Shown here: positions 21,788 to 61,600 of the stretch, one piece after another
Numbering within the stretch: position 1 is the first letter of the stretch
Layout: each line of letters opens with the position of its first letter
NCBI GenBank assembly: GCA_947172415.1
Contig: OX359199.1
Span: forward strand, 4,676,001-4,740,000
DNA from: Chondrosia reniformis
Taxonomy: Eukaryota; Porifera; Demospongiae; Chondrillida; Chondrillidae
Reading direction: 5' to 3'
DNA: 64,000 nt
The notes under the pieces: generated by a model
Seen by the model: the letters and a program-made list of their open reading frames with translations, nothing else
What the model was told of the DNA's origin: nothing
Database searches by the model: none
Program-made: the position numbers and the translations under genes

Positions 21788-31640
<9,853 letters not shown>

Positions 31641-31831: not shown

Positions 31832-34800
31832 TTAAGAGATAATATCAATTTTCATTAAGTCAAATGCACACAAAACGTTTTGGCTTTGGAAAGCTATTTT
31901 TGCTTCGTGCAAAAGTTTATCCATCACATCTTTATCGTCGGGTCGATATCGCTGACTAAAGTGGGTCAGGATAAGCTGTCTCACATTAAGACTTCTGGCA
32001 AACTCTCCTGCCATCCCTAAATAGATTGCCATAAGATTGTAGCAGTAAAACATATTATATAGATGGATACATTACATATTAATTAATGATCAAAAATATA
32101 CAGTGACATAGCCTATAATCACAGCTAGTCATTGACTTATATTATTAGTTTTGGCAATACATGGGTTCACAGATCAAGATAAAGACTCCCAGGATCACTG
32201 ATGAAGGGTGGAATTCCCAGAAACAGCTGTCTGAACCAGTGGAGAAGAAGATGAAAGAAAAGAAAAGAAGAAAGAAAGACTCTTGTATCTTTATCCAAAG
32301 CTCTCTTTAGGTTTAGTTCCCCTATAGGCTCTTTTACAGAATAGACATATAGCATGTAGGAAAATGGTATATTAGATTTTTCATGGTATACATACATACC
32401 TATCTGAATACGAAAACTAATGTTCTAATTACATGGAAGTATTACCATGGAACCTTATATCTATACAAATCAAAGCTAGTAATGGTAACCTTTTATTCAA
32501 TTAAAATATAAAATATGAACCATCACAGCAATGGTTTGAAGTTCAGTTAAAAAGTCAAAAGTGTAAGCTCTCATCCCAACCATAACTACAGTCAACTTAA
32601 ATGCTTTTCAATCAAAAGTTAGTTAATATATGGTGCAACTGTATTGAGTGTTAACTACGCTAGCAGATGATTGCAAACAGAGAATGCAATAAAGAGTTGT
32701 AGACTTATAGAAATTATCCTACTGTTGCAACTTCACACTGTTCTTGAAATAAGGAAGAGGAAGGAACAGGCAATAACAACTTGCTAATTCTCACAGAGTG
32801 ATCAAGTTTTATGTTTGCACTCATTATACATACAACCTGTGGTACCCATATATACAAGCTGTAATGTCTCATCTTGCAAACTGGCCAAGTTACAAAGAGA
32901 TTTAGTATAGGAACAGCTGCGACAACATGCAACTTTAGAATTGAATACTACATTTTATATAGGAACTGTACTACCCAACAATAGCACTGCCATAGTGCTG
33001 AACTATAATGTACAGTACTTGACCTGAAACCAACCATATTCAGCTTTAAACTATAAATGACATTGTTATCTTGCATACCCAGAAAAATCTTTAATGTACA
33101 TACTATCATTCTGCATGCTAACATAATCATAGTAGCTAAAGTTATATATAACACAACTGTTTCTTTTTCAACAGATGGAACTGTGGAGGACAGATCAAAC
33201 ATAGATAGATGCCTAATTAGAAATTTTTGTTAGGACTTCTGTAGCTTGCAATCTATTACATACGAAGGATTCACAGAAGATCAAGATAAAGAAAAAGACA
33301 AAGACTCCCTGGGTCACTGATGAAGGGTGGAATTCCCAGAAACGGCCGTGTGATCCAGTGGAGAAGAAGATGAAAGAAGGGAAAAGAAGGAAGAAAAGAC
33401 TCCTGTATCTTCAACTAAAGCTCTCTTCAGGTTTAGTTCCCCTATAGGCTCTTTTACAGAATAGGCATAGCATGTAGGAAAATGGAATCTTAGATTTTTC
33501 ATACATAGAGTAAACTCATAGAGGGACTACACTCTAAGCTCTAATAGTTGAACCTTCTAGAAATAAGATAAAAATGTCTAACTATACCCAAAATACTATT
33601 AAAGTAGTAATCAGCAATTATAGAGGCTATTAAATAATAATTTTAAAGCAGACACTAAAGGAAGAATAAAAGTTTAAAAGTATGTACTTCTACCAATATG
33701 ATCTTACTTGGAGTGGAATGACCAAATTCTACTGTTTTGACTTGTAGTTCATTTTCATTTGTAGCTTCATGTACTAGAATATTGGCATTCATACAGAGTG
33801 GTGCTATGGCAGAACTGTCACATGTATCTCCTAGAATAACTACATTGGAAAATTATAACGCATACACCTACATATGTAGTCTAATTACAGTATTTAAAAG
33901 AGGTTAGTGTAAAAAGAAAGAACTGATCACACTGACCAAGCTTTCTTCCAGGTTTTGAAGGGCCTAGCACCATATATGGATGCACCTACATGCAGATATA
34001 ATAAAATTAGATGAGTGTCCAATCAAATGTAACATCCCAACACACCACACTTCCATCTGGAGCCGTCACTGTTTCTCCGTGCTGTAACTTCCCAAATAAG
34101 GGGCCAGGTTCCAAACCCAAGGCCTTTGCAGCTGTCACATCAAATCTACACCATAGTAGGATATTCCTGTATGCTACATACTATAAATTGAAACGTAATC
34201 AAATTGATTAAGAAAATAGTTTGTTAACAGAATAAAACTACACTTTGGGGAATATTAAGTAGAAGTTTTCTAGGAAATAAGTTTCTCTTTAACTAAAAAT
34301 TCATTTTCTAAATATGCTGCTATTAATATCATATTGTCCATGACACATTTTATGAAGATTATTACTGTTTGTGATATAATATGGATAATCATTAAAATTA
34401 CATTGGTTGTGGTTTAAGATAAGGGAATACTTTCAAGTGCAAGGCTTGGACTGGACATTGTCTGTTTAATGGTGGTCAACTTCTTGAAAGGCTACCTCAT
34501 GACAGGTTGGCAGGTATCCAGGGAGAAGCCTTTTACATTTTTCCTCAGACCATTGAAACAAAGAGCCAATTAGCCAATGGTTAGAGAGTGTTTACATCAT
34601 GTAGAATGAACAACATTTGCAGTTATTATTGGCCAGCTCTATACTATACTATCTCAGCATATGAAACAGTGCACTTCGTGTGACTATAACTTCCTTCTAT
34701 CACAAGTAGGAAAAGAACCCATATGGGATGGATGGGTCGATGGATGGATGGGTGGATGGATGGATGGGTGGATGGATGGGTGGGTCGATGGATGGATGGG

Positions 34801-36487
34801 TGGATGGATGGGTGGGTCGATGGATGATGAATGGATGGATGGATAGATGGATGGATGATGGATGGATGGATGGGTGGATGATGGATGGATGATGGATGGA
34901 GGGATGGAGGGATGGAGGGATGGATGGATGGATGGATGGATGGATGGATGGATGATGGATGGATGGATGGATGGATGATGGATGGATGATGGATGGATGA
35001 TGGATGATGGATGGATGGAAAAGCATTTCTTACATACTTTCCAGGTTGATCATCTTCTTGTATGACAAATCCAAATGAAGCAATTCTATGTTTAAGAGTA
35101 GCGGCTTTCACCTCTAAAGGACCTTCCTTACAACTATGCAGCAAATAGGAATAAACTTTCATGGCTCAGACAAAATAGAAAATAATAAATTGACTTACAC
35201 ATGCCAAAATCCATCTTGCGACTGGATAATGTCATTTCCAGCAAGTTCACTAATGTGCAATGGCCCAGTGGCAATGTGAGATGGTTGCCAATCTGACTGC
35301 AAAATAAATAACAAAACGTTGACATCCTCTGGAGCAAGTGTTTGCCTTCAAGTATTTCCTAAATAATGCTTATGATCACAAAGATATAAAAGCTCCCTAC
35401 AATATCCTACTGAACCACACTAAGGTAATTACATATTCAATTTAATCTACCTCAAAGTTATACACTACTGCACTAGCTTTGACGCAGGCAACATACATCA
35501 CATGACAGTTCATTGAACAAACATATGTCAATGTCACATATAGCTTTCAGATCTGTGGAATGCTGCACTGGACACTATACTGAGTACACACTGCATCATA
35601 TAACATGCAGCCTAACATTACCTATCATGTGACATAGGATCTACGAGACTACATAGATATCTTGATGATGAACCAAGCACTTGTAAGAGCACAATGAGCA
35701 GTGAGAGGGGCAGATATTAAATGCCAACTAATGATTTAATAAATTGGTATTATGTCACAAGGAAGCAGTACTTCCTACCGTCTCACAGCAACACACTTAG
35801 GAAGTACCCACAGGTTGGCGCCACAAAGATCAACAAGTATCATATTATTTTCAACCATTCAACTGTCAACAAGGTGCCCCTGGGCTTTGAACTAAATCAC
35901 TTGGCCAGCCCATATTGGTCTCCATTTTTTTCACTTACTATTTCATTGTGCTTTATATCATGTACAAGCTCATGGACTCTATACTTAAAGCCCATTATGG
36001 ACCTTGAAAGCTCCAAGCTAACTCTTAAAAACCTCCTCAGACCAACTGGTCCATAGATATCAAGAGGAGCCTTCTCTTCGGCTGAGTTCATGCTGACAGT
36101 GCACAATAACCCTGGCAACCCAAACACCTATTAAAGGAAATAACACTATTATTGGCATTATTAGTAGGACATTTACAGGAATACATAGATGGCAGTTAGT
36201 CACATGTACTCATTAACTAGACACACATGGTCTCCATGTAAGTGGGTTATGAATATTTTGGTGATTTTCCCCGGTCTCACAGGACTTTTCATCAACTGCA
36301 CTTGCGTGCCTTCGCCACAATCAAACATCCAATATCCAATAGCTATACATTTCAAAATAGGACAAAATCAAGTACATAACTCCCAGAGACTTTGTCATCT
36401 ACACCGACCAGTTCTTAATATCATCGAACTGGCGCCTCTGTGCAAGGAGGGATAGGCCGATCCAGTTCCTAAAAATGTTAAGTCCAT
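31832..36487 (-). CDS. ELAC1: Zinc phosphodiesterase ELAC1-type (short tRNase Z)
   Basis: Endonuclease that removes 3' trailers from precursor tRNAs, metallo-beta-lactamase fold. Start ATG at 36487 gives [14 protein letters not shown], matching the ELAC1 N-terminus. Following exons give MFDCGEGTQ and ITHLHGDH (the HxHxDH metal motif, about 36330-36250), [11 protein letters not shown] and [12 protein letters not shown] (36127-35910), [11 protein letters not shown] (35280-35200), [20 protein letters not shown] (35135-35035), [15 protein letters not shown] (34140-34010), [14 protein letters not shown] (33990-33930), HEATNENE and GHSTP (33840-33700), and [12 protein letters not shown] to the stop at 31832. 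Metal-ligand motifs (HxHxDH, HEAT, GHST, HFSQRY) are all visible. Introns hold two hammerhead-repeat copies and a GGAT array. It sits between the RTK ectodomain duplicates. Exon limits are approximate. Confidence 0.95.
32163..32393 (+). repeat. Hammerhead-repeat family, copy 4 (near-intact ribozyme)
   Basis: Stem I arm GGATCA 32192-32197, core CTGATGA 32198-32204, GGG/CCC hairpin, GAAAC 32220-32224, palindromic AGCT stem III, GTC ending at 32231, then TGAACC as the other stem I arm (5 of 6 pairs). The family tail follows to ttagatttttcat. It is antisense in an ELAC1 intron. Confidence 0.82.
33262..33502 (+). repeat. Hammerhead-repeat family, copy 5 (cleavage base changed)
   Basis: GGGTCA 33311-33316, CTGATGA 33317-33323, GAAAC 33339-33343, palindrome ACGGCCGT, then G at 33350 where a cleavable C, A or U is needed, then TGATCC 33351-33356 pairing fully with the first arm (one G-U). 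It is antisense in an ELAC1 intron. Confidence 0.82.
34725..35022. repeat. (GGAT)n/(GGGT) microsatellite
   Basis: About 300 bp of ggatggatggg-type units next to the ELAC1 exon encoding IQEDDQPGK. Serine/histidine/proline open frames across it are artefacts. Confidence 0.95.
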
Positions 36488-37560: not shown

Positions 37561-37790
37561 ATGGTCTATAATTTTCCCGTAGAAACAGCTGGTTCATTGA
37601 TGATTTTTGCCATCATTGGATGACTGGGAGGTCATCACTGGTTGCCACAAATAGGACTTCGGTCCCCCAGCCAAGTAGACGATTGTCACTTGGTTGGTTG
37701 GCGTAATTATCCAGTGTTGTTTATTATTTGCAATAATAGCCTAGCACAGGCTTAAAGTGCAATAAACTCCCCTTTTCAAACCCATTGCTC
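37561..37790 (+). mobile_element. Degenerate copy of the 333-bp hammerhead element
   Basis: It shares with 41650-41850 the blocks gaaacagctg, gatgactgggagg, aggacttcggtcccccag, cacttgg/ggcgtaat and a decayed gcaataaactcccc end. The CTGATGA half of the ribozyme is missing. It lies between ELAC1 and the RTK2 duplicate. Confidence 0.7.
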
Positions 37791-38099: not shown

Positions 38100-38340
38100 A
38101 AACAGTTGGTAAACTCTCCACTTGTTTGGTTTTAGCTGAAACTTCAAACTCGTACCTTTCCCATATCTTCAGACTCACATCTTACAGCACCCAAAACAAA
38201 CTCATTTCTTTCTTTTTCATCCTCATTGGCTTTAAATTTAGCCTACATTTGATAGAGTGCAAAAAGCCTAGATAATTAAACAATTCATTGGGAGCAAGTA
38301 TATATGCCTTGCACTTTATCTCTACCTATAATATGCATAG
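38100..38340 (-). pseudogene. Relic of a third RTK ectodomain copy
   Basis: The minus strand shows AKFKANEDEKERNEF after a splice-acceptor-like tag, aligning with the RTK1 exon AKVKEDDGYKMEL (about 26840) together with its upstream intron (acctcta, ggagtaaata-like blocks). A second open piece reads WERYEFEVSAKTKQVESL, fibronectin-III-like, followed by a stop. A hammerhead repeat interrupts it at 38341. It is more diverged than RTK1 is from RTK2, hence an older duplicate. Confidence 0.5.
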
Positions 38341-38582
38341 CCAAGGATCCACAGAAGATCAAGATAAAGAAAAGACAAAGACTCCCAGGATCACTGATGA
38401 AGGGTGGAATTCCCAGAAACGGCTGTCTGACCCAGTGGAGAAGAAGATGAAAGAAGGGAAAAGAAGGAAGAAAAGATTCCTGCATCCTCATCCAAAAGCT
38501 CTCTTCAGGTTTAGTTCCCCTATAGGCTCTTTTACAGAATAGGCATATAGCATGTAGGAAAATGGTATCTTAGATTTTTCAT
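38341..38582 (+). repeat. Hammerhead-repeat family, copy 6
   Basis: A full-length copy from ccaaggatccacagaag to ttagatttttcat. It has GGATCA, CTGATGA, a GGG/CCC hairpin, GAAACGGCTGTC and TGACCC; stem I has one mismatch and stem III one G-U. It lies immediately left of RTK2. Confidence 0.85.
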
Positions 38583-38755
38583 ATAGTTACATACTGTACA
38601 TATGACAATAGTTATCCTCACTACATACGTACTTGCAGGCATAGGGTCTATAATACATCTTTCAAAATTTACAGCATGCACATTGAGAGTGCCTATATCC
38701 TTCAAGTACATTCTACTACATTCATATTAGGCAGTACAAGACACATCCTCTATTC

Positions 38756-41700
38756 ACTTACAACGAGGGCTTTGTTAACTCTGTGACAATATACTGCAAT
38801 GACTATAAATATCAGTAAGGAGACCAGTGTCAGAAAACCACCAATTGCTCCTATTAAGCCATACACTGCTTGTGGAGAAAGACTTGAATTTGCATCTTTG
38901 GTTAGCATATTAAGAAAACGAAATAAATTTAAAATACATCTTAAATATACATGTACGTATATAGACATGGAATTTATAGGATATATATAATTCATATAGA
39001 TTGTATAATGAATACATGTAAAAGTAAACACATTAAACCAATCTGAATGTTCGTTTAATTAAATGTGAAAAAGACTGTAATGCATTAGAATATGGAACAT
39101 TTGGATTGATAATCCATGCATAATATTTATACCTGGAGTAAGAACAGTTAATGATGGTGCTTCTATAGTAAGGTTGGTCCAACTGCTGATGGCTCCATAA
39201 ATACTATGTGCTCTAACCTGTGACATATATATTATATGGATATATACGTATATATGCCAGATATTTTTGATATGTATTTTATTGAAAAACAATTATTATG
39301 TTCTTATGGAAACAGATCATATGCCAACTAGGGAAGACCCTCAATATACGTAGATGTAGACTGCACACATATACGTATGTGTATCTGCTATATACACAGC
39401 ATATATATACAATATGCAAAACTACATCATAATTATAATACAGTTGACATGGCTTACTCTAAACATCCAATGAGAGTCTTCCACTTTTGGACTTGAAATG
39501 GTTACTGTTATGTTTTCTTCTTCTTTATTATGCTAAAAGTCATGGAGAATGAAATTCACTACATGGTGAACATGTGTTCCAGGAATAACCCCTAACTCAA
39601 GAAATTTATTATCTTACACTATATGTCATCCTGTGAAGATTATCAATGTGTTGGGATCCAAACCAGACTGTAAACTCCACTATTCCTCCCGACACATTGG
39701 CTGGTAGCCGCCAGGATAATGTGATCAATAAGGGGTTTTCTGCTGAGTCATTCATTGACAAGTGGAATTCTTTGTAAGCCAGCTCCCTCACAGGTGATGG
39801 TGGTATAGCTGTGAAATATGTATATACAAATATGAAATACTGCCACTATTATCATAATATGCTGTATACCCTATCTAGATAACTGTACAACATTTGATTG
39901 CATAATGTATGTATTATTGTCATTTTTAATAAACTACTCTTAGTTAATACCCAGCTTAACTGTAATATGTGACTATATGTAAATGCATATGCAGTGAAAC
40001 GAAGTTAATATACATGCACAAAAATCTCATATATGGTTAATGATTTCCAGTGATTATTTGCAATTTAAACATGTGCATATGCTACGTGATTTTAAAAACA
40101 TTTCTAATATATATTTTTTCATAAGTACCTTGCAAATCAATGGAACGTTTTCGTTTACTGTCCAAATTACCACACACACATGATGATCTTGGATCGTTAC
40201 ATATATGATCAATCAACTCCATCTTATATCCATCATCCTCTTTGACTTTAGCCTATATTGATAGGGTATAACAAACCCTAAGTAATTCAACACCTCACTA
40301 GGAGTAAATAGGCTCACATTACATTTACCTCTATATTTAATCGTTTTGTGCCAAATGCTATATTAGAAAAGACAGTTGCATATTCAAAAGTATCAGCCTA
40401 TAAGTGAAGATAAATGTACAGAAATATATACTCCTCTTACATACTTACGTGCTTATGTACATATATAATTAGCTGCAATTGGCCATGTACTGACCACAAG
40501 TGGTTGAGAGTGTGCTTCTATTGGATCTGACCCATCAATCACTGTAACCTCTATTAATTGATTCTTTAGAGGTGTATAGATAAATTGTCGTCCTGCAATG
40601 TTTCTGTCTCTCAGTGTTGCAGTAATGGTAATGGAATGGTATCCAGTAGTAGTATTTGGAGTACTACTATAGTCTAGTACAGACACAATAGCATGACTCC
40701 CACAATACAGCCAAGCTACAAATTTTGATCACAAAAAGACATTTAAACTTTTAATACTTCATAAAACAAATATTAAGAGTAGCTCTAACCTATACCTCAG
40801 CGGTTCAGAGATTTTATGTAAAGCTTTACCTCTAGTGGTCAGATTGGTTGCTAAGGTAGATGGTATGGTGCGATCACCACCTCCTGAACTGCTATTTTGT
40901 GCACATGCAACCTGCAAGAAGATTGTGAAAATGATTCATTTGACAAAATTAGCAATACTACCCTTTATTGTAAATAAAAACCAAGTATATATTGAGTTGG
41001 TTATATGCTTACATTAAGACTCATATATATATATATATATTTTAATACAGATACGGGGTAAGTTGCAATAATATAATAATTATACGTATATATAGTTATT
41101 ATAATTACTTAAACATATGTACATCTATTTATTTTTTAGCTTACTTGTTTGATCATAAATGATTTTAATATAAATATATTTAACTTATTATAGCAATATC
41201 TTAAATATTAAATATTTATATACAAGTTAAAAAATAAATTTTATTAATGTTTAGTGTAAAACTTACTGATATCTCTAAAGCAGTGTTCAGTATATCAGGA
41301 ATTGATGTAAAGTTTTCTTTGTAGATGTAGCCAGTAACTTGCCTCGCTTTCTTGTCATCCTGCATGTTACATAAACACATATCGTTACTTTAAGTAAAAT
41401 ATTCACTGGAAAAATATTAGACTTCGGTCACTTGGCTGGTTTGGCGTAATATTTTTCCAGTGAATATTTTACTTATCATCCTAGCCTTTGCACGGCTCAT
41501 TGCAATTAACTCCCTTTTTCATTGTGAGCGTTCAGTCTCGCTTAGACTGCAGCCTCCATCTTCGCTTGTTTTGATTAATAAGTGGAGACAGTCATCCAAC
41601 TCACCATCATTGAAGTGTACCACACTGATGAGCCCAAATGAGGGCGAAACAGCTGTCCGTGGTTCTTTGATGATTTTTTTTCCATCTCGGATGACTGGGA

Positions 41701-42288
41701 GGCAATCACTGGTTGCCATTTTTAATAGGACTTCGGTCCCCCAGCCAAGATTAGACTCGGTCACTTGGCTGGTTTGGCGTAATATTTTTCCAGTGAATAT
41801 TTTACTTATCATCCTAGCCTTTGCACGGCTCATTGCAATTAACTCCCTTTTTCATTGTTACTTTAATATGCATATGTGTATATATACGTATATACATACA
41901 CATATAGAGCTACGCATATGTATGTATGTATACTTACTTTTGAGACTGGTACTGTTGTTGTGACACCACTATTATTGAATAATTGATATACCCTTATTAT
42001 ATAGTCAGAGCAGAACTCCTCCTCTATATGTAATATAAGTATACGTATCCACTGTATATCATTGAGGCATATATATATATATATATATATTGTATATGTA
42101 AACAATTCAACAAGCTGAAAAGGATGGCATTATATATAAGCATACACATAGATTCTATGAAATATAGTGGATACTCACCTTGACTAGGATCAAAGGAAAC
42201 CTCTAAACCAGAAAGATTAACAGAATTTTCTAAAAAGGCAGCAAGCCTGATATTTTTTGGTGGGTCTGGAATAGCCATACCTGTAGTA

Positions 42289-42373
<85 letters not shown>

Positions 42374-45274
42374 GTACCCATACATACAACAGATGTATGA
42401 AATGCAAACCAAAGGTGGTTAAGGGGCACAGGGCTATACCTGGACACGTATAAACCATTGCCACTTAAGGCTACCAGGCCGTCCGCCCAGGTACATAGCC
42501 CGACTGCCTGGGCGCATTAAGCCATCGCCACTTAAGGTTACCAGGCAGCACTTCCCAGACAGTCACATACACAAGCACCGAGTTCAGAGGTGATGCATTA
42601 TATTATAGTTCAAGTGAAATAAAGGATGTATATGTAATAATGGACAGAAAATGAGTCAATTTGGGTATTTTTTGATTAGTCTTGTAAGAGTTCAAAGGCA
42701 TGCTGCAATCTAACCTGGTGGACAAAAGGTAGTTAATCTAGATTCTCTGATAGAAGTGCTTCCAGCTAAAATGGGTTCATAACGTAGAACTGTTATGCTG
42801 CACTGAATTGTTGGAAAGCTTATAAAGTCTGGAGACTGTCGGTAAAACTCAACTTCATCAGGCAGGAATATGAAATTCATGTGCTGTAAACAAAACGTCT
42901 ATGTTAATCAAATTGATTACATATATCAGGGATTACTCTAAGTAGAGATGGCCCAAAAGCATGGCTACCTTATTCAATGTACTGTATCAGAGAGTACGGC
43001 CAGTGGCATACTGAAACTTCATCACTTCTATGTTTGGGCGCATCGATCCCTACTTCTAGTATATCCATGGGAAGTGATGAAGTTTCAGTATGCCACTTCT
43101 GCAATGTTAGCCTTACCATATGATCACTTTCTTGTTTCGTTACTTTTTCTAGATGTGCCAATCACTGTTATAGTGCCATCCCTTCATTTGTGAATGTTTT
43201 ATTTAACTTATTACATATAATCACCTCTTACCAATTTAAAATTGCTGCAATTTTACTGGTAGATATACAGTATAAGTATACAAGTATACAAGTATATAAG
43301 TATATACTGAGAAAGAGTGTTTGTTTATATATATACGTATAATGTATATAATCAATGCAACATACATGTGGTATGTAGCGAAATGTTCCTCTTAATGCAT
43401 CTTGTATTGACCACAGTATTCCATATGTCTTTTCTGTGGTAAGCTGGCTATTAATGGTCTCATCTTGTAGTTGAAATTTATAAACTCCTTTCTCCCACTT
43501 GTCTTGGTTTGATGAACGAATTAGCCTGGGACGATAATTTCCATAGTTTGGTGGTAGTTCATCCACTGATACTATATGTGTAATAATGATAATCCTGTCA
43601 CATTTTATCGTTTTAATATGGTAAAAGTAAACTATGCACCATAGATATATGAATATATGACTTTATTTTCAGATGCCAAACAAATATCAACTTTTTAGAT
43701 GATTTTTGAAAGCATTGGTGCTGTTACAGTAGTTTCAAAAAAACTAATTAACTTTTTTGTTTAACTTGGGTGTATCATTGATGCTGTAACTAGACACTAA
43801 GTTATGGTAACAGTACGTAGTCTGTGTGATAATGACTTTATTTCAGTAAAGCAGTAATCAACATCTGAAGTGGAAGAACCTCTTTCATGTTGTTCCTTCT
43901 CCTTCTCTTTCTCTAGCTCATCATCAAATATTAATCATCATGATTTTGTGACGATGATGATGAGAGAGAGAATTTAAAGAAAGATACAGTGAAAAAGTTC
44001 TAAAATTAGCTTAGTAACTAACTCAGAGGGTCTAGATTACAAAATATTCTGGAGGAGGACCAAGTTTGGGATCTTAAAGTTTTATAATTCTACCATCCAG
44101 TATACCCCCTACCTGAATTAATTGTTTATATGATTGAAAAAGGGTTAACGTTGACAATCAGTGGTGTGTACAAGAAAGGCACAACTTGCACTGTAAGGTA
44201 TATATTATTGTAAATTATAAAATAAACTTTGTGGTATTTTTAAGCCATAAATGTGGAACGATCCCTTAGCTATATAGAAGAAATTCTTGCTCCATAAATG
44301 AAGGTTATTAATACACATATATGTGACATGCATATTCTTAATATAAGAGAAAGGTTTATAGGCCTATATGAGTATATATATCACAAACCTTCTACAGTTC
44401 GATGAAGTTCTACATCTGTAATACTACACATTTCCTCACAAAGACTGATGTTACTCATACATCTGTTATAGCATGTACTCCCTTCAGAGGTATGATTTGC
44501 TGCAAAAGCCCTTTCACACACACCTCTCTATAAAGGTGAAAGAAGATCATGTTTGAAAACCATACACTTTCAGCTGCATGCAGATAGAGACTGACTGGTG
44601 TTTGGCAGAGTTCAGCACAAGGTGTTGAAGGGTGCAATATTCTCGCTTCTCTATATATTGATCTGAACCTGACATTAAGCATACATGCTGACAAACATAA
44701 GTGTGCCTAAAGCATGTACAGAAAAACGATACTTAATTCCAGCATAAGTTACCTGTGATTACTTCGCAGTGAATCTATACTGTACAGTATCAGTTGGTCT
44801 GCAATTAGTACAATGATACATAACATGTATATATACGCTAGCTCACTTCAAATGCATCAGTACAATTGTAACTGGTGGCATCAGTGCCCAACGGGTAGTC
44901 ATCACTCCTCTCTCCAGTTGGAGGATACTATTTATATACATACAAGAAGTGACATTCAGTTTAGTATCGATTACACAGTATAGAGATTTATGAGCGCAAT
45001 CTACCTTCCTCATGCATATTGGAAAACAACTTTCCAGAAGCCTAGCTTCTCCTGCTGCTGTCTCGGAAGGCCCGTATGGATAGTGGCCCGTTAGGCTTTT
45101 GGTGACCTTCAGTGCGGTACAGCCCGGATGGCGGCAGTAGAAAAAACCCCAGTGCCCATCGCTTTTCTTAGCGATTCTGCCAGCGTCGTTCAGTAAATAG
45201 CGCGCTCCAGGTGGAGCAGTAAGCGACTCTATTGGAATCGCTAAGGAGAGTACGGTAACCAGAGCGACTAGCAT
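38756..45274 (-). CDS. RTK2: duplicated RTK ectodomain and TM exons, no kinase
   Basis: It follows RTK1 exon by exon from start ATG 45274 (MLVALVTVLSLAIPIES) to the TM exon (GLIGAIGGFLTLVSLLIFI) ending at 38762 with a preserved donor, gtaagtg. No kinase exon follows before ELAC1. Frames are intact: the copy of exon 28277-28180 has an 18-bp in-frame deletion, and the exon near 40686-40470 has clustered replacements (AVEFTVFDGSD in RTK1, LIEVTVIDGSD here). The 5' exons are almost identical to RTK1; the TM exon is clearly more diverged. It may be a decoy or soluble/membrane receptor, an alternative ectodomain spliced to RTK1 kinase exons across ELAC1, or a decaying pseudogene. The lower boundary is the last homologous exon, not a proven stop codon. 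Confidence 0.7.
41388..41862 (+). mobile_element. Hammerhead-bearing element with 333-bp direct repeat in an RTK2 intron
   Basis: A direct repeat with period 333 bp (cacttggctggtttggcg at 41429 and 41762) gives about 1.3 units. An inverted fragment at the left end (taaaatattcactgg, 41394 on) mirrors the end of the unit. The unit contains a hammerhead ribozyme at 41606-41674, and the palindrome ccagccaag/cttggctgg. No reverse transcriptase is present, so it is non-autonomous. The layout resembles Penelope pseudo-LTRs or animal retrozymes. Confidence 0.75.
41606..41674 (+). ncRNA. Type I hammerhead ribozyme
   Basis: Core CTGATGA (41625-41631), stem II GCCC/GGGC (632-635 with 642-645) with loop AAATGA, GAAAC (646-650), palindromic stem III ACAG/CTGT (649-656), cleavage triplet GTC (655-657). 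Stem I pairs accac (619-623) with gtggt (659-663), then an internal loop, then ATCATTGAAG (606-615) with CTTTGATGAT (665-674) using two G-U pairs. One weak point is A624 opposite C658 at position 1.1/2.1. It is antisense to RTK2 transcription. Confidence 0.82.
42288..42373. repeat. (ATT)n microsatellite, RTK2 copy
   Basis: The counterpart of 28538-28639 in the duplicate, about 15 bp shorter. Confidence 0.97.
43013..43103. repeat. Shortened hairpin, RTK2 copy
   Basis: The same left arm as 29269-29311, but part of the loop and the inner right arm are deleted, leaving about 27 bp of outer stem (agtggcatactgaaacttc and its complement). Confidence 0.85.
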
Positions 45275-46293
45275 TTCTGATCTTCAGCACTATAGGGGCA
45301 GCTACCTTTACTTTATCGTCCCCGGAGTCGTAATGAATAGAGAGTATACTACGGCATTAATTTAAGGAAATGATGATTGATAATGATGTCAGAATTGTGT
45401 AATCTTGTGGTTTTAACGTGGTTAATAGATGGGAAAGTGCGTTCATATACGACATGTAATTACGAGCGAATTTAATGATAATGACGATGAGATCCGGCGA
45501 GAGCCTACTGCAAAAGTCACCTTTTCCAAGATGGCGTCGCTTCTTCTTATTTTAGCTTTATGTGCAAAATCAGAAAAAGGTCTACAGACCCTCTTAGATG
45601 TACTCTTGCAAAAGTGCCTTTTTACTCTATCATATCCTAGTAAACAAATCACCAATCATATTTATGATATGTATTTAAAGCACAAATCCCTTAGCTAATT
45701 CATGGATTTTATGGAGCATGCACATCCCCACCTCTCACCCACCCCACCCTATAGATATACCTAGCTGTCAATTCCAGAAGAGCAATGAACTTTCGAGCAC
45801 TATTTATCATGACTTTCCTTTGTAATGTGACTTATAAACCTGAACTGGTTGGACCATCCTTATTAATCTTTGTATGGCATGTTACAATAATAGATAATCA
45901 TTATTATTATTATTATTATTATCAGTACACTTATTACACAGTATACTCAGAATAACAAGAGACCATATACATGTTCTAGTATTGCTATATATGTGGTGAA
46001 ATAAGGGGATGGGGGCACAGCCCCCCACATTTTGAAAATAGAGCAACAGTAGTACCCCTGCGAGTATTTGGACTACGTCCACACCTAGTATTATCTTCAT
46101 GCACATAAAACATTTTGGAAAGCTATTAGATATGTCTAGTAGATATATACATATGTACCTAAAAGCACGTACTCATAATAAGATTAATGCTCTTTATTTA
46201 TCTTCCAGCTTTGAAATTATGATCAAATCAGTTTCCAATTAAATGTACATCTAATACATATACGAATGCACTGTATGAATTGTTTCCTTGTTT
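45275..46293. other. RTK2 upstream DNA and intergenic gap to calaxin
   Basis: To about 45375 it matches RTK1 upstream DNA; 45410-45460 holds an inverted 44-bp block (see findings). Beyond the small frame at 45429-45698 there is AT-rich sequence, a short ATT run at 45897 and a G/C-rich patch at 46000-46040. I see no further gene. Confidence 0.6.
45429..45698 (+). CDS. Unrecognised small ORF, divergent from RTK2
   Basis: An 89-codon frame. An internal ATG at 45531 in a favourable context (aagATGg) would give a 56-residue product starting MASLLLILALCAKSEKGL, with a hydrophobic start resembling a signal or anchor. Its first codons overlap the inverted block at the RTK2 duplication edge, so the upstream ATG is probably recent chance sequence. 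I do not recognise it; it could be a first exon, a small secreted peptide or noise. Confidence 0.25.
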   Translation: MGKCVHIRHVITSEFNDNDDEIRREPTAKVTFSKMASLLLILALCAKSEKGLQTLLDVLLQKCLFTLSYPSKQITNHIYDMYLKHKSLS

Positions 46294-55623: not shown

Positions 55624-58600
55624 ATGGCCGAGTCCGAAGAAGAGAAATCAAAGTCAACCTGGCCTGGCACTAAGGATGCCTACGAACTTGGTGACATTAT
55701 TGGTAAGAACGAACTTGTAATACTTAGTTCTTGTAGATAATATCTTTTAAACTAGTCCTTTGCTTGATTTGACCATATGTAGGTCACGGGGCTACGTGCG
55801 TCGTTCAGCGAGCACTGTGCAAGTCAAAGGGAGTTAGTATAGCAATTAAAAGAATAGATTTGGAACAATATAACTCTACCATTGATGAAATACTGGTAAG
55901 CTAAATGGTGTTTTACACTTTCTATTCTGTGATTACTGGATGTGTTAATTAATACTCTTAAAACGGTATTCGAAGTTCTGATAGTAGCTTGTTTCTATTA
56001 TTCTACTTGTTTATAGAAAGAGATTCAGTTCATGGGAAGCTGCTTTCATGATAATTTATGCACCTATCGGACGTCTTTTGTAGTCAGGAATGAGCTGTGG
56101 GTTGTCATGGATCTGATGTCTGGAGGTATGGCTGCTTCTTCTTATCTTCTTACATGTCAATGTCACTGTTTGAGTGTCTCGGTAGCTCTCTTTACTGCAC
56201 CAAAGTCTCATTGAATAAGATCACTATCTCACCTCCATTTTAATTATGTGAGGTGTTAAAAATAGAGACAAGATAACTGTCTGGACTATGTGCCATTCTA
56301 CATTATTTATATACATACCTATATAATATGTGTGTATATACCTTGGCTTAGACTACTGATATCTTTCAGAGGCTTATAACAATTAATAATCCAAGAACCA
56401 AAGACTAGTACATTAGAAATACAGTAGAATCTCATTATAACGAAATTGCTTATATAGTGAATGTCTCAGTATAGTGAAGTACTTTGCTAGCCCCAGCAAA
56501 AGTTGTATACTTATATACGTATACATTCAATATAGTAAATATTTGATATAAGGAACTAATTTTGGTCCCCTTTGAGCTTCACTATAATGAGATTCCACTG
56601 TAGTAACTAAGCAGCCTGTTTGAACTACAGCAGTCTAAATCATTCTATTTTCTTTCTTGTTTAAAGACCATTTTTTGTGATGTTGTCATAGTGATGGTGC
56701 AATTGAATGTGTGCACCCTCATTACCAGTTTCTAGATCCACCACTGTTACCTGTGACTAACACATAGAGAGGATTGTCATGGAGCCTGCACTAGAACATG
56801 TTTGACTTTAAACACTGTATAATATGGCATTTTCTGGTAATGTACTGTAATATCACTGCATCATACGTATATTAGGTTCTCTGCTAGACATCCTTAAGCA
56901 TCAGTTAAGCAAAGGAATCAAAGGCGGACTTCTTTCTGAAGATATCATAGCTACTGTTTTAAGGGAGGTTTTACTGGGTCTGGAATATCTCCACAATGCT
57001 GGACAGATACATCGGTAATGCTCATATACCATTATTAGAACATACGTACATTGTATACCATTATTAGTACATATACCATTATTAGTACATATACCACTAT
57101 TAGTACATATACCACTATTAGTACATATACCATTATTAGTACATATACCACTATTAGTACATATACCACTATTAGGACATATACCATTATTAGTACATAT
57201 ACCACTATTAGTACATATACCATTATTAGTACATATACCACTATAAGTACATATACCACTATTAGTACATATACCATTATTAGTACATATACCACTATTA
57301 GTATATATACCACTATTAGTACATATACCATTATTAGTACATATACCACTATTAGTACATATACCACTATTAGTACATATACCATTATTAGTACATATAC
57401 CACTATTAGTACATATACCACTATTAGTACATATACCACTATTAGTACATATACCACTATTAGTACATATACCATTATTAGTACATATACCACTATTAGT
57501 ACATATACCACTATTAGTATATATACCACTATTAGTACATATACCACTATTAGTACATATACCACTATTAGTACATATACCACTATTAGTACATATACCA
57601 TTATTAGTACATATACCACTATTAGTACATATACCACTATTAGTACATATACCACTATTAGTACATATACCACTATTAGTACATATACCATTATTAGTAC
57701 ATATACCACTATTAGTACATATACCACTATTAGTACATATACCATTATTAGTACATATACCGTTGTGACCAATGATCCATTTATTTAGAAAGTCTCACAT
57801 GATATGGTGATAGGTTGTAACACACTGGGAACTGCTGTGTTGGTACCACTAAAGTGGCTTCAAGTGCCACCTGTTTGAGTTATTGTATCACATGACTCTG
57901 TAGTGTTTGTCATAAGACTGCCACAATGTCTAAAATTAAGATTTACTTAAATTACTATGGCCATATATGGTGTTGCTAAGTACTGGCTTCTGTTGAATTT
58001 TGTGATGTTAAAGATTGTGTTTTCTTTCATGTGTTTTGTTTTGCATCTATTATGTTAAAAATTTAAAACTGACAAGTTTTCCATCTTCTAATTGAGGGAA
58101 TTCATGTACCAAAACTTTGGGCCAATCCTTCATGGTGTAGTGTAGCTGATGTTCAAGTGCTCTTGATAGTGAAGTGAACCAACGGACCTTAGTGAACATG
58201 GGATATTTAGTTTTGTTTGTGCATTAGTATATGGTTGTGGTTTCAAATTGTTGTAATTGCAATATGTATTGTTGTTATACTTTTATAACATGATTGCTTA
58301 CATTTTTGGGTGTACGTAGGTAGGGAATTGTTATTACTACTACTCTGTAAACACATTCCTAATTAACAGTGGTATGAAGTCTCAATTTGCTTTCTCTTTC
58401 AGAGATCTCAAAGCTGGGAATATTCTTCTGGGCGGGGATGGTGCAATTAAGTTGGCAGGTATTATAAACGTATAGGAATGTTACCTCCAGCTCATGTACA
58501 GCTCCCGTATATGTTTGACAGGTATTATAAAGGTATAGGAATGTTACCTCCAGCTCATGTACAGCTCCTGTATATGTTTGGCAGGTATTATAAACGTATA

Positions 58601-61600
58601 GGAATGTTACCTCCAGCTCATGTACAGCTCCCGTATACGTATGTTTGTATCATGCACATCTTTCTTTTGTGAAGATTTTGGCGTAAGCAGTTTTCTTGTG
58701 AAGCCTGGGGAGAGACCAGAGTCCAAGAAGAAGCCAAGAAAGACATTTGTTGGTACTCCTTGCTGGATGGCACCAGAAGTCATGGACCAAGTGAGTTGTT
58801 AGAGCAAAATCACATCTGGTGCATCACTCTCTTTGCTTGTCCATGTGAGCTCAGCTCCTAATCAAACATCTCTATTGGACATAACAGTCTAATGTACATG
58901 GGTAGGGATAAAGCTTTAGTACTCTATCTTATTTACATACGCACAACGCACAAATTTATAGTCTAGTTTATGTGTATAATTGTTTGTCGTTGATATATAG
59001 GGCCGCCATTTTTTCAGGCCATCCTCACTCCTTTCTTTAGAGTGCATATATACCACCATAACCTCTGATAGTATACATTTACTGTATGTCTACGTGTATT
59101 AAAGTATACATGTGTCGATTTAGTTGAGTAGGGTGTGCCATACCTTGGAGGGTGTGCCATACCTTAGAGGTGTGCCATACCTTGGAGGGTGTGCCATACC
59201 TTGGAGGGTGTGCCATACCTCGGCCGGTGTATGGCTACCAGTGATGTACATGTGACATACATGTACCCAGTGGAGAAGAAGATGAAAGAAGGGAAAAGAA
59301 GGAAGAAAAGACTCCTGTATCTTCATCCAAGCTCTCTTCAGGTTTAGTTCCCTATAGGCTCTTTTACAGAATAGGCATAGCATGTAGGAAAATGATATCT
59401 TAGATTTTTCATGTGACTAGCAGGCAACAGTTTGAACTTTGACCTTTCCTTATCTCAATTGTTGGTCCCCCACCACCAAACTCTGAATTGCCTGCCAATT
59501 GTGTTAATTTGCTGCTGTGTAGTTCCATATGAAAGGTGCTTCTCTTTCGTGTGCTACAGACAGTTGGCTATGATGTAAAGGCTGACATTTGGAGTTTTGG
59601 TATAACTGCTCTGGAGCTGGCCACAGGAACTGCCCCATACGCCAAGTTTCCACCACTGAAGGTCCTCATGCTGACAATGGAGAACCCGCCACCCACACTA
59701 GAAGTCTGTGGAGAACTTAACAGTGAAGACTACTCCAAATATTCAAAACCATTTCGGAAAATGATTGAAAAGTGTCTGCTAAAAGATCCAGAGAAAAGGT
59801 GTGTGTACTCTTGGAATATACAGTGTAATTTGATATAACATATAATTCAGGTAAAGATAGCCTACTTACATTTACATCTGTGATATGCAATGTCTTTTTG
59901 TTTGTGGTAGACCAACAGCTTCAGAATTGTTAAAACATCCATTCTTCAAGAAAACTAAAGATAAAGAGTTTTTAAAGGAGATTTTGATCCCTCTCTCTCC
60001 TGATATAAAGCTTAGAGGAAAATCAGTGAGGCACTCTCTCACTCACCCATTCACACTCATTCACAGTCACTCACACTAACTCACAGTCACACTCACTAAC
60101 TCACAGTTACACTCACTAACTCACAGCCACACTCACTAACTCACAGTCACACTCACTAACTCACAGTCACACTCACTAACTCACAGTCACACTCACTAAC
60201 TCACAGTCACACTCACTAACTCACAGTCACACTCACTAACTCACAGTCACACTCACTAACTCACAGTCACACTCACTAACTCACAGTCATACTCACTAAC
60301 TCACAGTCACACTCACTAACTCACAGTCATGCTCACTAACTCACAGTCACGCTCACTAACTCACAGTCACACTCACTAACTCACAGTCACGCTCACTAAC
60401 TCACAGTCACACTCACTAACTCACAGTTACACTCACTAACTCACAGCCACACTCACTAACTCACAGCCACACTCACTAACTCACAGTCACACTCACGCTC
60501 GCTTACTCCACCATAGGTACGTCGCGTCAAAGGGGCCAGTGGTCGAATGCATAAGACAGAAGAAGGTGATTGGGTGTGGTCAGATGACGAGTTTGTAGAA
60601 GAGACTGTAAGTAATCCTAAAGAGCATCTAGACATCACTGACACTTCTAAGGGTACCACATAACTGACACATTAATGTACTTTTAGCCATATAAATAAAA
60701 CTAATTTTTTATGTATCAATCACTATTGCATTTGAATGAGTACTTTGATCAGTCTATATTGTTTTGGTTGTAAGAATCTAATGAGCTCCTCTCAAGGGTC
60801 AAACATGTTAATTACTTAGAAACCATGATCTCACGCTTCTCCCAAACTACTGAACTAAAAGATTGGGCCCTAAGTAAGCAGTTTACTGTATAATTCTCAC
60901 TTTATACAGATACCTGAAGAGAAGGAGAAAGGAAAATTGTTAAGTGCACCAAAGCCTTCTGACTCAGAGGTGATCTAGCATTTCCTCTGTTGTACCCTTT
61001 TAAGTGGAAGTTGTATATCTTCTGCCTTAAAATAGGTGCACTCAAGGGAAGAGTTTGCGGAAGTAATGGTCCCTGTACCCAATAATATTCCTCCTGTATC
61101 AGAACGAGGCACATCCAATGTGGCCATACCTCCTCAGCCTTCCCAGGGACAACCTCCTAAGAAAGTTTTGATGTATGCGTTTTATTCCCAAGGATATGTG
61201 AAAATGTAATAGTTGTAGTTTGCTTCAACTTCAACATGTGCATATATACGTTATACATGTACAGCAGCAGAAAATAGAATGGTTTTATGTCTGTTGTGCA
61301 TCCAGTGGGTCTACAACAGCAGTACCTAGCCCAGCAATATTGGACTTGCAACAGAGGCACCAATCAATCACACAGCAGTTGACAGTTACTATGAATCAAG
61401 TGAGTGTTCTGAGTGTTCTCTTTTGTGAAGCCTTGTAGCCATTTTACTTTCTGGCTTCTCAGTGTCAACTTATTTTTGAATATCAACTAAATGTGAAATG
61501 TATCTCATCATTTAACTCTCCAGCCACTCATGTCTGCTGAGGAGCACAATGAGCTAATAGGCTTCCTCAGGAGACATGTGTGGGTGTGGTAAAATCCAGA

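What the first reader, a model, noticed from the sequence alone, without database searches (positions are those of the whole stretch)
41606..41674. Canonical hammerhead ribozyme inside an RTK2 intron
Seen directly: CTGATGA, G-C-closed stem II with AAATGA loop, CGAAAC, palindromic stem III (ACAGCTGT), a GTC cleavage triplet, and a long stem I with a small internal loop, the layout of type I hammerheads in Penelope-like elements and animal retrozymes. The one flaw is an A-C opposition at position 1.1/2.1. A short loop-less stem III suggests cleavage works best as a dimer, which fits the tandem 333-bp repeat around it. It is antisense to RTK2.
Basis: partly seen in the sequence, partly recalled or inferred. 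Interest (0 to 1): 0.9.

Follow-up and report, generated by a model that had tools for sequence, protein, structure and literature searches.

The report
Sponge ribozyme parasite of Penelope elements
The spot is one worn copy of a tiny self-cutting RNA parasite that is scattered through a sponge genome, and its copies carry the same insertion scars as the sponge's Penelope-like jumping genes, which points to the enzyme that moves such parasites.

Summary
The hammerhead ribozyme (HHR) is real: Rfam Hammerhead_1, 34.1 bits (cut-off 34), with 363 core-pattern matches genome-wide and none to the reversed pattern. It is not an intron function. It sits in one copy (41391-41858, about 1.3 units, near-perfect 13-bp target duplication) of a dispersed, non-autonomous, animal-type retrozyme, in a genome whose chromosome lengths fit the kidney sponge Chondrosia reniformis. 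The A-C opposition is private to this copy. Its second repeat unit has no HHR. A ~97% identical tandem duplicate of the host locus keeps the insertion but lost the HHR unit.

What is new is the insertion signature. Two retrozyme families and the sponge's Penelope-like element (PLE; RT + GIY-YIG) show the same two-armed, head-to-head insertions with one 'short' and one 'long' end 35-50 nt apart in the unit, and target duplications of about 12 bp: 32 of 32 scored, 5 of 9 inspected later. This is the PLE 'tail' signature. PLEs were already suspected movers of animal retrozymes; this is direct sequence evidence. Cleavage, RNA circles and PLE dependence are inferred. One-armed copies also exist, and retrozyme and PLE tails share layout, not convincing sequence.

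The parts
41381..41393 (.). Left target-site duplication ATCGTTACTTTAA (its last 3 bases also fit the element end)
   Evidence: 12 of 13 identical to 41854-41866
41391..41419 (-). Antisense arm, 29 nt, ending at the 'short' site
41420..41858 (+). Sense arm, 439 nt, about 1.3 units, ending at the 'long' site
41429..41761 (+). Complete 333-bp retrozyme unit (44% GC)
41619..41663 (+). Type I hammerhead ribozyme core; predicted cut after 41657; mispair 41624 x 41658
41762..41858 (+). Partial second unit without HHR
41812..41858 (+). Tail: sequence between the short and the long site (inferred RT start region); outer border uncertain by a few bases because of overlap with the duplication
41854..41866 (.). 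Right target-site duplication ATTGTTACTTTAA
27963..28098 (+). Same insertion in the tandem duplicate, one unit (with the HHR) missing; antisense arm 27963-27991, sense part 28001-28098
37590..37778 (+). Older, diverged relict of the same kind; ends at a long-type end; HHR core not intact

Best explanation
The HHR belongs to a decayed copy of an animal-type (non-LTR) retrozyme, and the sponge's retrozymes are moved in trans by a Penelope-like reverse transcriptase/endonuclease. Proposed cycle: multi-unit copies are transcribed; HHRs cut the RNA into units of about 333-363 nt, probably as dimers because stem III has no loop; units are ligated into circles. A PLE protein binds the tail region, nicks both target strands some 10-12 nt apart, and each target end primes reverse transcription at one of two adjacent internal sites ('short' and 'long'). 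The two cDNAs are joined head to head, giving inverted arms, one short and one long end, and a target duplication. Shown by sequence: HHR motif, dispersed families, end rule in two-armed insertions, duplications, the same rule in the resident PLE, and higher average similarity within an insertion than between insertions. Inferred: cleavage, circles, use of the PLE enzyme. The window copy is probably inert (1.1/2.1 mispair, single HHR).
For: 32 of 32 two-ended insertions scored (13 family A of 21 loci, 7 family B of 18 loci, 12 PLE pairs from 40 end loci) have one short and one long end; exact duplications of at least 8 bp in 30 of 32, median 12, against 2.9% of shuffled pairings. Of 9 more looked at by eye, 5 fit: L056, L062, L115, L118 and the PLE copy in L072. 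The PLE has open frames with RVT_1 and GIY-YIG and 3' ends 97-100% identical among 46 reported matches. The published Anolis PLE starts reverse transcription at two adjacent internal sites that bound the tail and cuts and extends both strands (PMC11167929, parts 1-2 of 4 read); rotifer PLEs have inverted pLTRs, a 31-bp tail at one of them and 8-10-bp duplications (PMC3846280, passages). Within-insertion divergence is lower than between insertions: A medians 0.9% (same arm, n 9) and 2.6% (opposite arms, n 20) against 4.8% (n 950); B 2.3% (n 10) and 1.6% (n 12) against 10.0% (n 518); 0 of 1000 label shuffles in each.
Against: The scored list was made by hand after seeing the ends. Of 9 later or left-out cases 4 do not fit: L119 (short end plus an end inside the tail), L054 (short end plus an end at the HHR cleavage site), L025 (short end plus an end past the long site), L049 (two short-like ends, no duplication). 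One-armed copies exist, e.g. L060 with a 10-bp duplication. Tail sequences of PLE and retrozymes are not convincingly related: PLE-A 804 and PLE-B 687 of 1000 shuffles reach the score; only a second PLE against A stands out (0 of 1000), one of six comparisons. The family-A tail does not fold better than shuffles. The nearest segment lies in the same insertion for only 15 of 40 (A) and 9 of 25 (B) segments. No LINE family was put through the same test. No RNA data.
Confidence: 0.72

Rival explanations
1. The 333-bp unit is the pseudo-LTR of an autonomous PLE family, so the HHR is simply a PLE's own ribozyme and there is no separate retrozyme.
For: Same end structure as the PLE; PLEs here carry a minimal HHR-like motif near the 3' end.
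Against: The PLE frame matched 5 of the 112 fetched loci then held (L014, L028, L063, L071, L072; L014 and L063 cover one place), and in none of the 20 family-A loci is it joined to the units (in L063 it lies about 0.7 kb from the insertion). The one RT frame adjoining units, in L053, is another retroelement hit by an insertion. The PLE's own end is a different sequence with a different HHR type that Rfam does not call.
Confidence: 0.1
2. The retrozymes are moved by a LINE-type target-primed machinery; inverted arms come from ordinary twin priming, and the resemblance to PLE ends is coincidence.
For: Twin priming and duplications above 10 bp are known for LINEs (recalled); published animal retrozymes were first compared with LINE duplications (passage of PMC4918200).
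Against: Two fixed end positions used once each in 32 of 32 scored two-armed insertions, in the PLE as in both retrozyme families. LINE twin priming would not be expected to give two fixed ends (inference).
Confidence: 0.12
3. The repeats are tandem or satellite DNA spread by recombination and duplication, not retroelements.
For: Some copies are clearly duplicated with their flanks (L116 and L117 95% identical over 1 kb; L114 alike), and copies often lie in an abundant 13-bp minisatellite.
Against: Different flanks with their own target duplications in 30 of 32 scored insertions.
Confidence: 0.04
4. A co-opted intronic ribozyme that acts on the receptor gene's transcripts.
For: It lies between two predicted exons of a receptor-like gene.
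Against: It is antisense to the gene; the ~97% identical duplicate, the one followed by kinase exons, lacks the HHR unit; this copy has a private mispair next to the core; it is one of hundreds of HHRs in the genome.
Confidence: 0.02

Closest known systems
Animal non-LTR retrozymes with type I HHR (Cervera & de la Pena 2020, PMC7229834; abstract, part 1 of 3 of the results, discussion and passages seen)
   Same: Type I HHR, units of a few hundred bp, dispersed and partly tandem copies, GC below 50%, target duplications above 4 bp, highly self-paired unit RNA, probably dimer-type HHR
   Different: Here most examined copies are head-to-head inverted with two fixed ends; the words 'inverted' and 'sponge' do not occur in that paper. 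RNA circles are shown there, not here.
Penelope-like elements (Poseidon of Anolis, PMC11167929; rotifer Penelope, PMC3846280, passages)
   Same: Inverted arms, tail present at one end, short target duplications, HHR near the start sites, partial tandems
   Different: The retrozyme units code for no RT or endonuclease (no Pfam match over cut-off in the two longest frames) and carry a canonical HHR rather than the minimal one
Plant LTR retrozymes (PMC4918200, passages)
   Same: Non-autonomous HHR retroelements proposed to pass through RNA circles
   Different: Type III HHR in LTRs with primer-binding site, 4-bp duplications, LTR-retrotransposon machinery

Membership tests
Hammerhead ribozyme type I (RF00163) | Covariance-model score at or over the curated cut-off | tested here: met
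   34.1 bits, cut-off 34; relatives 34-43 bits
Hammerhead ribozyme type I (RF00163) | Covariation of paired positions | tested here: met
   42 two-sided cells against 20.1 shuffled and 5-15 slid, but two of five measures do not exceed shuffles
Hammerhead ribozyme type I (RF00163) | Self-cleavage after GTC | not testable with these tools
   needs transcription in vitro
Animal non-LTR retrozyme | Type I HHR in a unit of about 150-450 bp | tested here: met
   333 bp here, 363 (L052, A), 355 (L042, B)
Animal non-LTR retrozyme | Tandem copies | tested here: met
   Two or more HHRs at unit spacing in several loci, four in a row at two places by pattern; the window copy has only 1.3 units
Animal non-LTR retrozyme | Target duplication longer than 4 bp | tested here: met
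   30 of 32 with at least 8 bp exact
Animal non-LTR retrozyme | No LTR, primer-binding site or polypurine tract | not tested
   no search made for these motifs
Animal non-LTR retrozyme | Abundant linear and circular unit-length RNA | not testable with these tools
   no RNA data
Penelope-like element | RT plus GIY-YIG frame in the element | tested here: not met
   no RT or GIY-YIG match in the frames through the unit; the resident PLE has both
PLE-type insertion signature | Inverted arms with the tail at one end only | tested here: met
   32 of 32 scored, 5 of 9 others; one-armed copies exist
PLE-type insertion signature | Start-site sequence shared with the resident PLE | tested here: inconclusive
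   PLE-A and PLE-B no better than shuffles, second PLE against A 0 of 1000

The most novel reading that the evidence does not exclude
A PLE reverse-transcriptase dimer copies one ribozyme-made RNA circle from both cut target ends at once, each subunit starting at its own site, so that a two-armed retrozyme insertion is a pair of rolling-circle transcripts of one circle joined head to head. Animal retrozymes would then be SINE-like parasites that imitate the two-site start element of PLEs by layout rather than by sequence.
Probability: 0.35. Interest if true: 0.8.

Novelty: new variant of a known kind. Interest (0 to 1): 0.62.

Why it matters
Which enzyme moves animal retrozymes is open: the papers of 2020 call PLEs a strong or likely candidate, from shared HHRs, tandem copies and co-occurrence. 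This sponge offers a base-level signature shared by two retrozyme families and a resident PLE whose 3' ends are 97-100% identical between copies, so the question can be tested directly: purify that protein and offer it retrozyme RNA. It also adds a sponge to the hosts (none named in the passages I saw), and suggests that the one-ended PLE tail reflects two start sites used once each per insertion.

Tried and rejected
Host-function reading: rejected, because the duplicate lost the HHR unit and the strand is wrong. 'RTK2' as host: Pfam kinase matches exist at 23.0-24.4 kb but behind the other copy; in the HHR-bearing copy no kinase exon was seen below the membrane-segment-like frame at 38.75-39.06 kb (frames listed; Pfam run on 22 selected window frames). 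The simplest splice pair around the insertion (donor near 42178, acceptor near 41361) does not keep frame when read by eye, so the exon boundaries stay open.

PLE-owned pLTR reading: L053 looked like an RT gene ending in units, but it is another retroelement without a GIY-YIG match. Shared tail sequence: weak. Shared minisatellite target: little weight, since the 13-bp repeat has 150,253 pattern matches genome-wide (reversed control 9).

Stop points as proof of a circular template: in family B 7 of the 25 arms of at least a quarter unit stop at unit positions 335-355, around the long site (345); in family A arms mostly stop elsewhere, and the range was chosen after looking. Kept as a lead only. 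The first within/between comparison was spoiled by self-complementary hits (A: 556 of 2000 permutations reached the observed mean; B: 0 of 2000); redone with overlapping hits removed.

Selection to keep in mind: one search lists insertions whose ends I picked by hand (13 of 21 family-A loci, 7 of 18 family-B loci). L049 had two ends and was left out; L056 was left out for lack of a called left end. The window's left end was placed by hand because the anchor missed it. The 12 PLE pairs were chosen by neighbourhood among 40 fetched end loci. L116 and L117 are copies of one insertion, L114 shares their flanks and those of L043; the three were not counted. Single-ended or one-armed family-A loci were not scored (L053, L060, L064, L067, L069; also L027, L028, L030).

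Full report
Observation. The ribozyme described at 41606-41674 is there. Rfam's Hammerhead_1 model matches 41619-41663 + at 34.1 bits (cut-off 34), the one gathering-level match in the window. The same family searched over the whole genome scored 73 of 11,921 candidates and reported 65 matches, 51 over the cut-off, best 43.1 bits; the window's own was not among those listed. A 33-letter core pattern occurs 363 times with at most one mismatch, the reversed pattern 0 times. On 26 distinct rows 78.1% of cells pair, against 27.8-34.6% when slid, and 42 cells change on both sides against 20.1 in shuffles; two other measures do not exceed shuffles. The A41624 x C41658 mispair occurs in the window row only.

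Genome. 117,379,552 bases in 15 contigs. The lengths of contigs 1-14 agree to rounding with 13 of the 14 chromosomes of the kidney sponge Chondrosia reniformis, and contig 4 differs by 0.01 Mb (Table 3 of PMC12181767, passage). The window would be chromosome 11, 4,676,001-4,740,000. The name is an inference from lengths.

Host locus. The minus strand carries a receptor-like gene in two tandem copies, 39.4-45.4 kb and 26.0-31.7 kb, 96.3-97.8% identical in the three long blocks. Pfam tyrosine-kinase matches lie at 23.0-24.4 kb, behind the second copy. The insertion is present in both copies with the same ends and target duplication, so it predates the duplication. The 26-32 kb copy lacks one unit, the one with the HHR. 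Loss by recombination between the 102-bp direct repeats is the simplest reading (inference), because the missing unit holds sequence that the short form could not supply.

The element. The insertion runs from 41391 to 41858: a 29-nt antisense arm, then a 439-nt sense arm of about 1.3 units with one HHR, flanked by ATCGTTACTTTAA and ATTGTTACTTTAA. The unit is 333 bp, 44% GC. The 334-bp query gave 135 matches from 40 of 976 candidates scored. A tail pattern of this family occurs 238 times, reversed control 0. A second family, B (unit 355 bp in L042), gave 186 matches from 40 of 1,188 candidates scored, with a 501-bp query. Nine spot-checked loci gave 13 Rfam HHR matches in eight of them; L063 had none over the cut-off. 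Four HHRs at unit spacing occur at two places by pattern. A family-A unit folds with z -5.04, 0 of 100 shuffles as good. A 180-codon stop-to-stop frame through the window copy has no Pfam match over its cut-off.

End rule. Read outward from the arms, ends cluster at two places in each family. Family A: short end ...GCTTATCA, long end about 44 nt further...CCCTTTTTTCA. Family B: short ...GATGACA, long about 50 nt further...TTTTTTCCA. The resident PLE: short ...CCAAAGATA, long 35-36 nt further...TTATTCTATT. In one search, 32 of 32 insertions (13 A, 7 B, 12 PLE) have one of each; exact duplications of at least 8 bp in 30 of 32 (median 12) against 2.9% of shuffled pairings. The two below 8 are L055 (4 exact, 13 with one mismatch) and L037 (6). 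Of 9 more looked at by eye, L056 (no duplication seen), L062, L115, L118 and the PLE copy in L072 fit, and L119, L054, L025 and L049 do not. So 37 of 41 two-ended insertions fit, with hand selection as told. One-armed copies also occur, for example L060 with a 10-bp duplication.

The PLE. L071 and L072 hold open frames of 772 and 750 codons with RVT_1 and GIY-YIG and a minimal HHR-like motif that Rfam does not call; a pattern for that motif occurs 709 times, control 0. A 154-nt 3'-end query gave 46 matches at 97-100% identity from 40 of 1,241 candidates scored. The 772-codon frame finds 1,193 proteins at E 0.001 or better among 7,991 scored; the best 120 are listed, one of them an Anolis carolinensis protein, 41% identical over 93% of the query. 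Anolis carolinensis is the source of the PLE shown to start reverse transcription at two adjacent internal sites bounding the tail and to cut and extend both strands (PMC11167929, parts 1 and 2 of 4 read); whether the listed protein is that element was not checked. Rotifer PLEs show inverted pLTRs, a 31-bp tail at one of them, and duplications of 8-10 bp (PMC3846280, passages). The two-armed retrozyme copies carry this signature.

Template. Segments of one insertion are on average more alike than segments of different insertions, in the same arm and across arms (A medians 0.9% and 2.6% against 4.8%; B 2.3% and 1.6% against 10.0%; 0 of 1000 label shuffles each), as expected if both arms copy one RNA. 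But the nearest segment is in the same insertion for only 15 of 40 and 9 of 25 segments, and gene conversion could do the same. Arms longer than one unit cross the HHR cleavage site, so their template was circular or uncut.

Comparison with print. The 2020 retrozyme paper (abstract, part 1 of 3 of the results, discussion, passages) names LINEs or PLEs as possible movers and PLEs as a strong candidate; a review and a curation guide say much the same (passages). Searches for retrozyme + Penelope + target site (5 papers), hammerhead ribozyme + Porifera (0), hammerhead + penelope-like + Amphimedon (0), Penelope + pLTR + tail + target site duplication (3) and penelope-like + hammerhead + tail + inverted (5) listed no title on this end rule in retrozymes. 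Only openly licensed papers are held, and three relevant papers were not, so absence from print is not established.

Verdict. A real HHR in a probably inert copy of a sponge retrozyme, and good but hand-selected sequence evidence that two-armed retrozyme insertions here are made by PLE-type machinery.

Noticed in passing
window 21791-24424 and 38750-45400, minus strand: A receptor-like gene duplicated in tandem; kinase exons (Pfam PF07714 at 23.0-24.4 kb) are seen behind one copy only.
   Followed up: partly
G000, genome-wide: A 13-bp minisatellite (TAGTTGTATGTAC) has 150,253 pattern matches against 9 for the reversed pattern, and many retrozyme and PLE copies lie in it.
   Followed up: partly
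L072:843-3400: A PLE copy appears inserted inside the tail of a family-A retrozyme, with a 12-bp duplication read by eye.
   Followed up: partly
L054:2612-2654: One end of a retrozyme insertion stops at the HHR cleavage site, as if priming had begun at the 3' end of a cleaved RNA; no duplication seen.
   Followed up: no
L043, L114, L116, L117: Family-B insertions multiplied together with their flanks, like segmental or satellite duplications.
   Followed up: no
family-B loci, unit positions 335-355: 7 of 25 arms of at least a quarter unit stop around the long start site, possibly one full turn on a circle; not seen in family A.
   Followed up: partly
L032, L035 and other places: A third HHR variant (loop CCAAAG, CTAAAG or CTAAAC) with the best Rfam scores among the checked loci (41.6 and 40.3 bits).
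   Followed up: no
window 16613-16885, 16026-16445, 57054-57761, 60061-60496: Very regular tandem repeats (41-, 20-, 18- and 20-bp units, 95-100% matches).
   Followed up: no
window 36203-36367, minus strand: Metallo-beta-lactamase (tRNase Z-like) exon between the two receptor copies.
   Followed up: no
window 38336-38583, 33259-33503, 32176-32384: Another repeat of about 210-250 bp, 92-93% identical, in three places.
   Followed up: no
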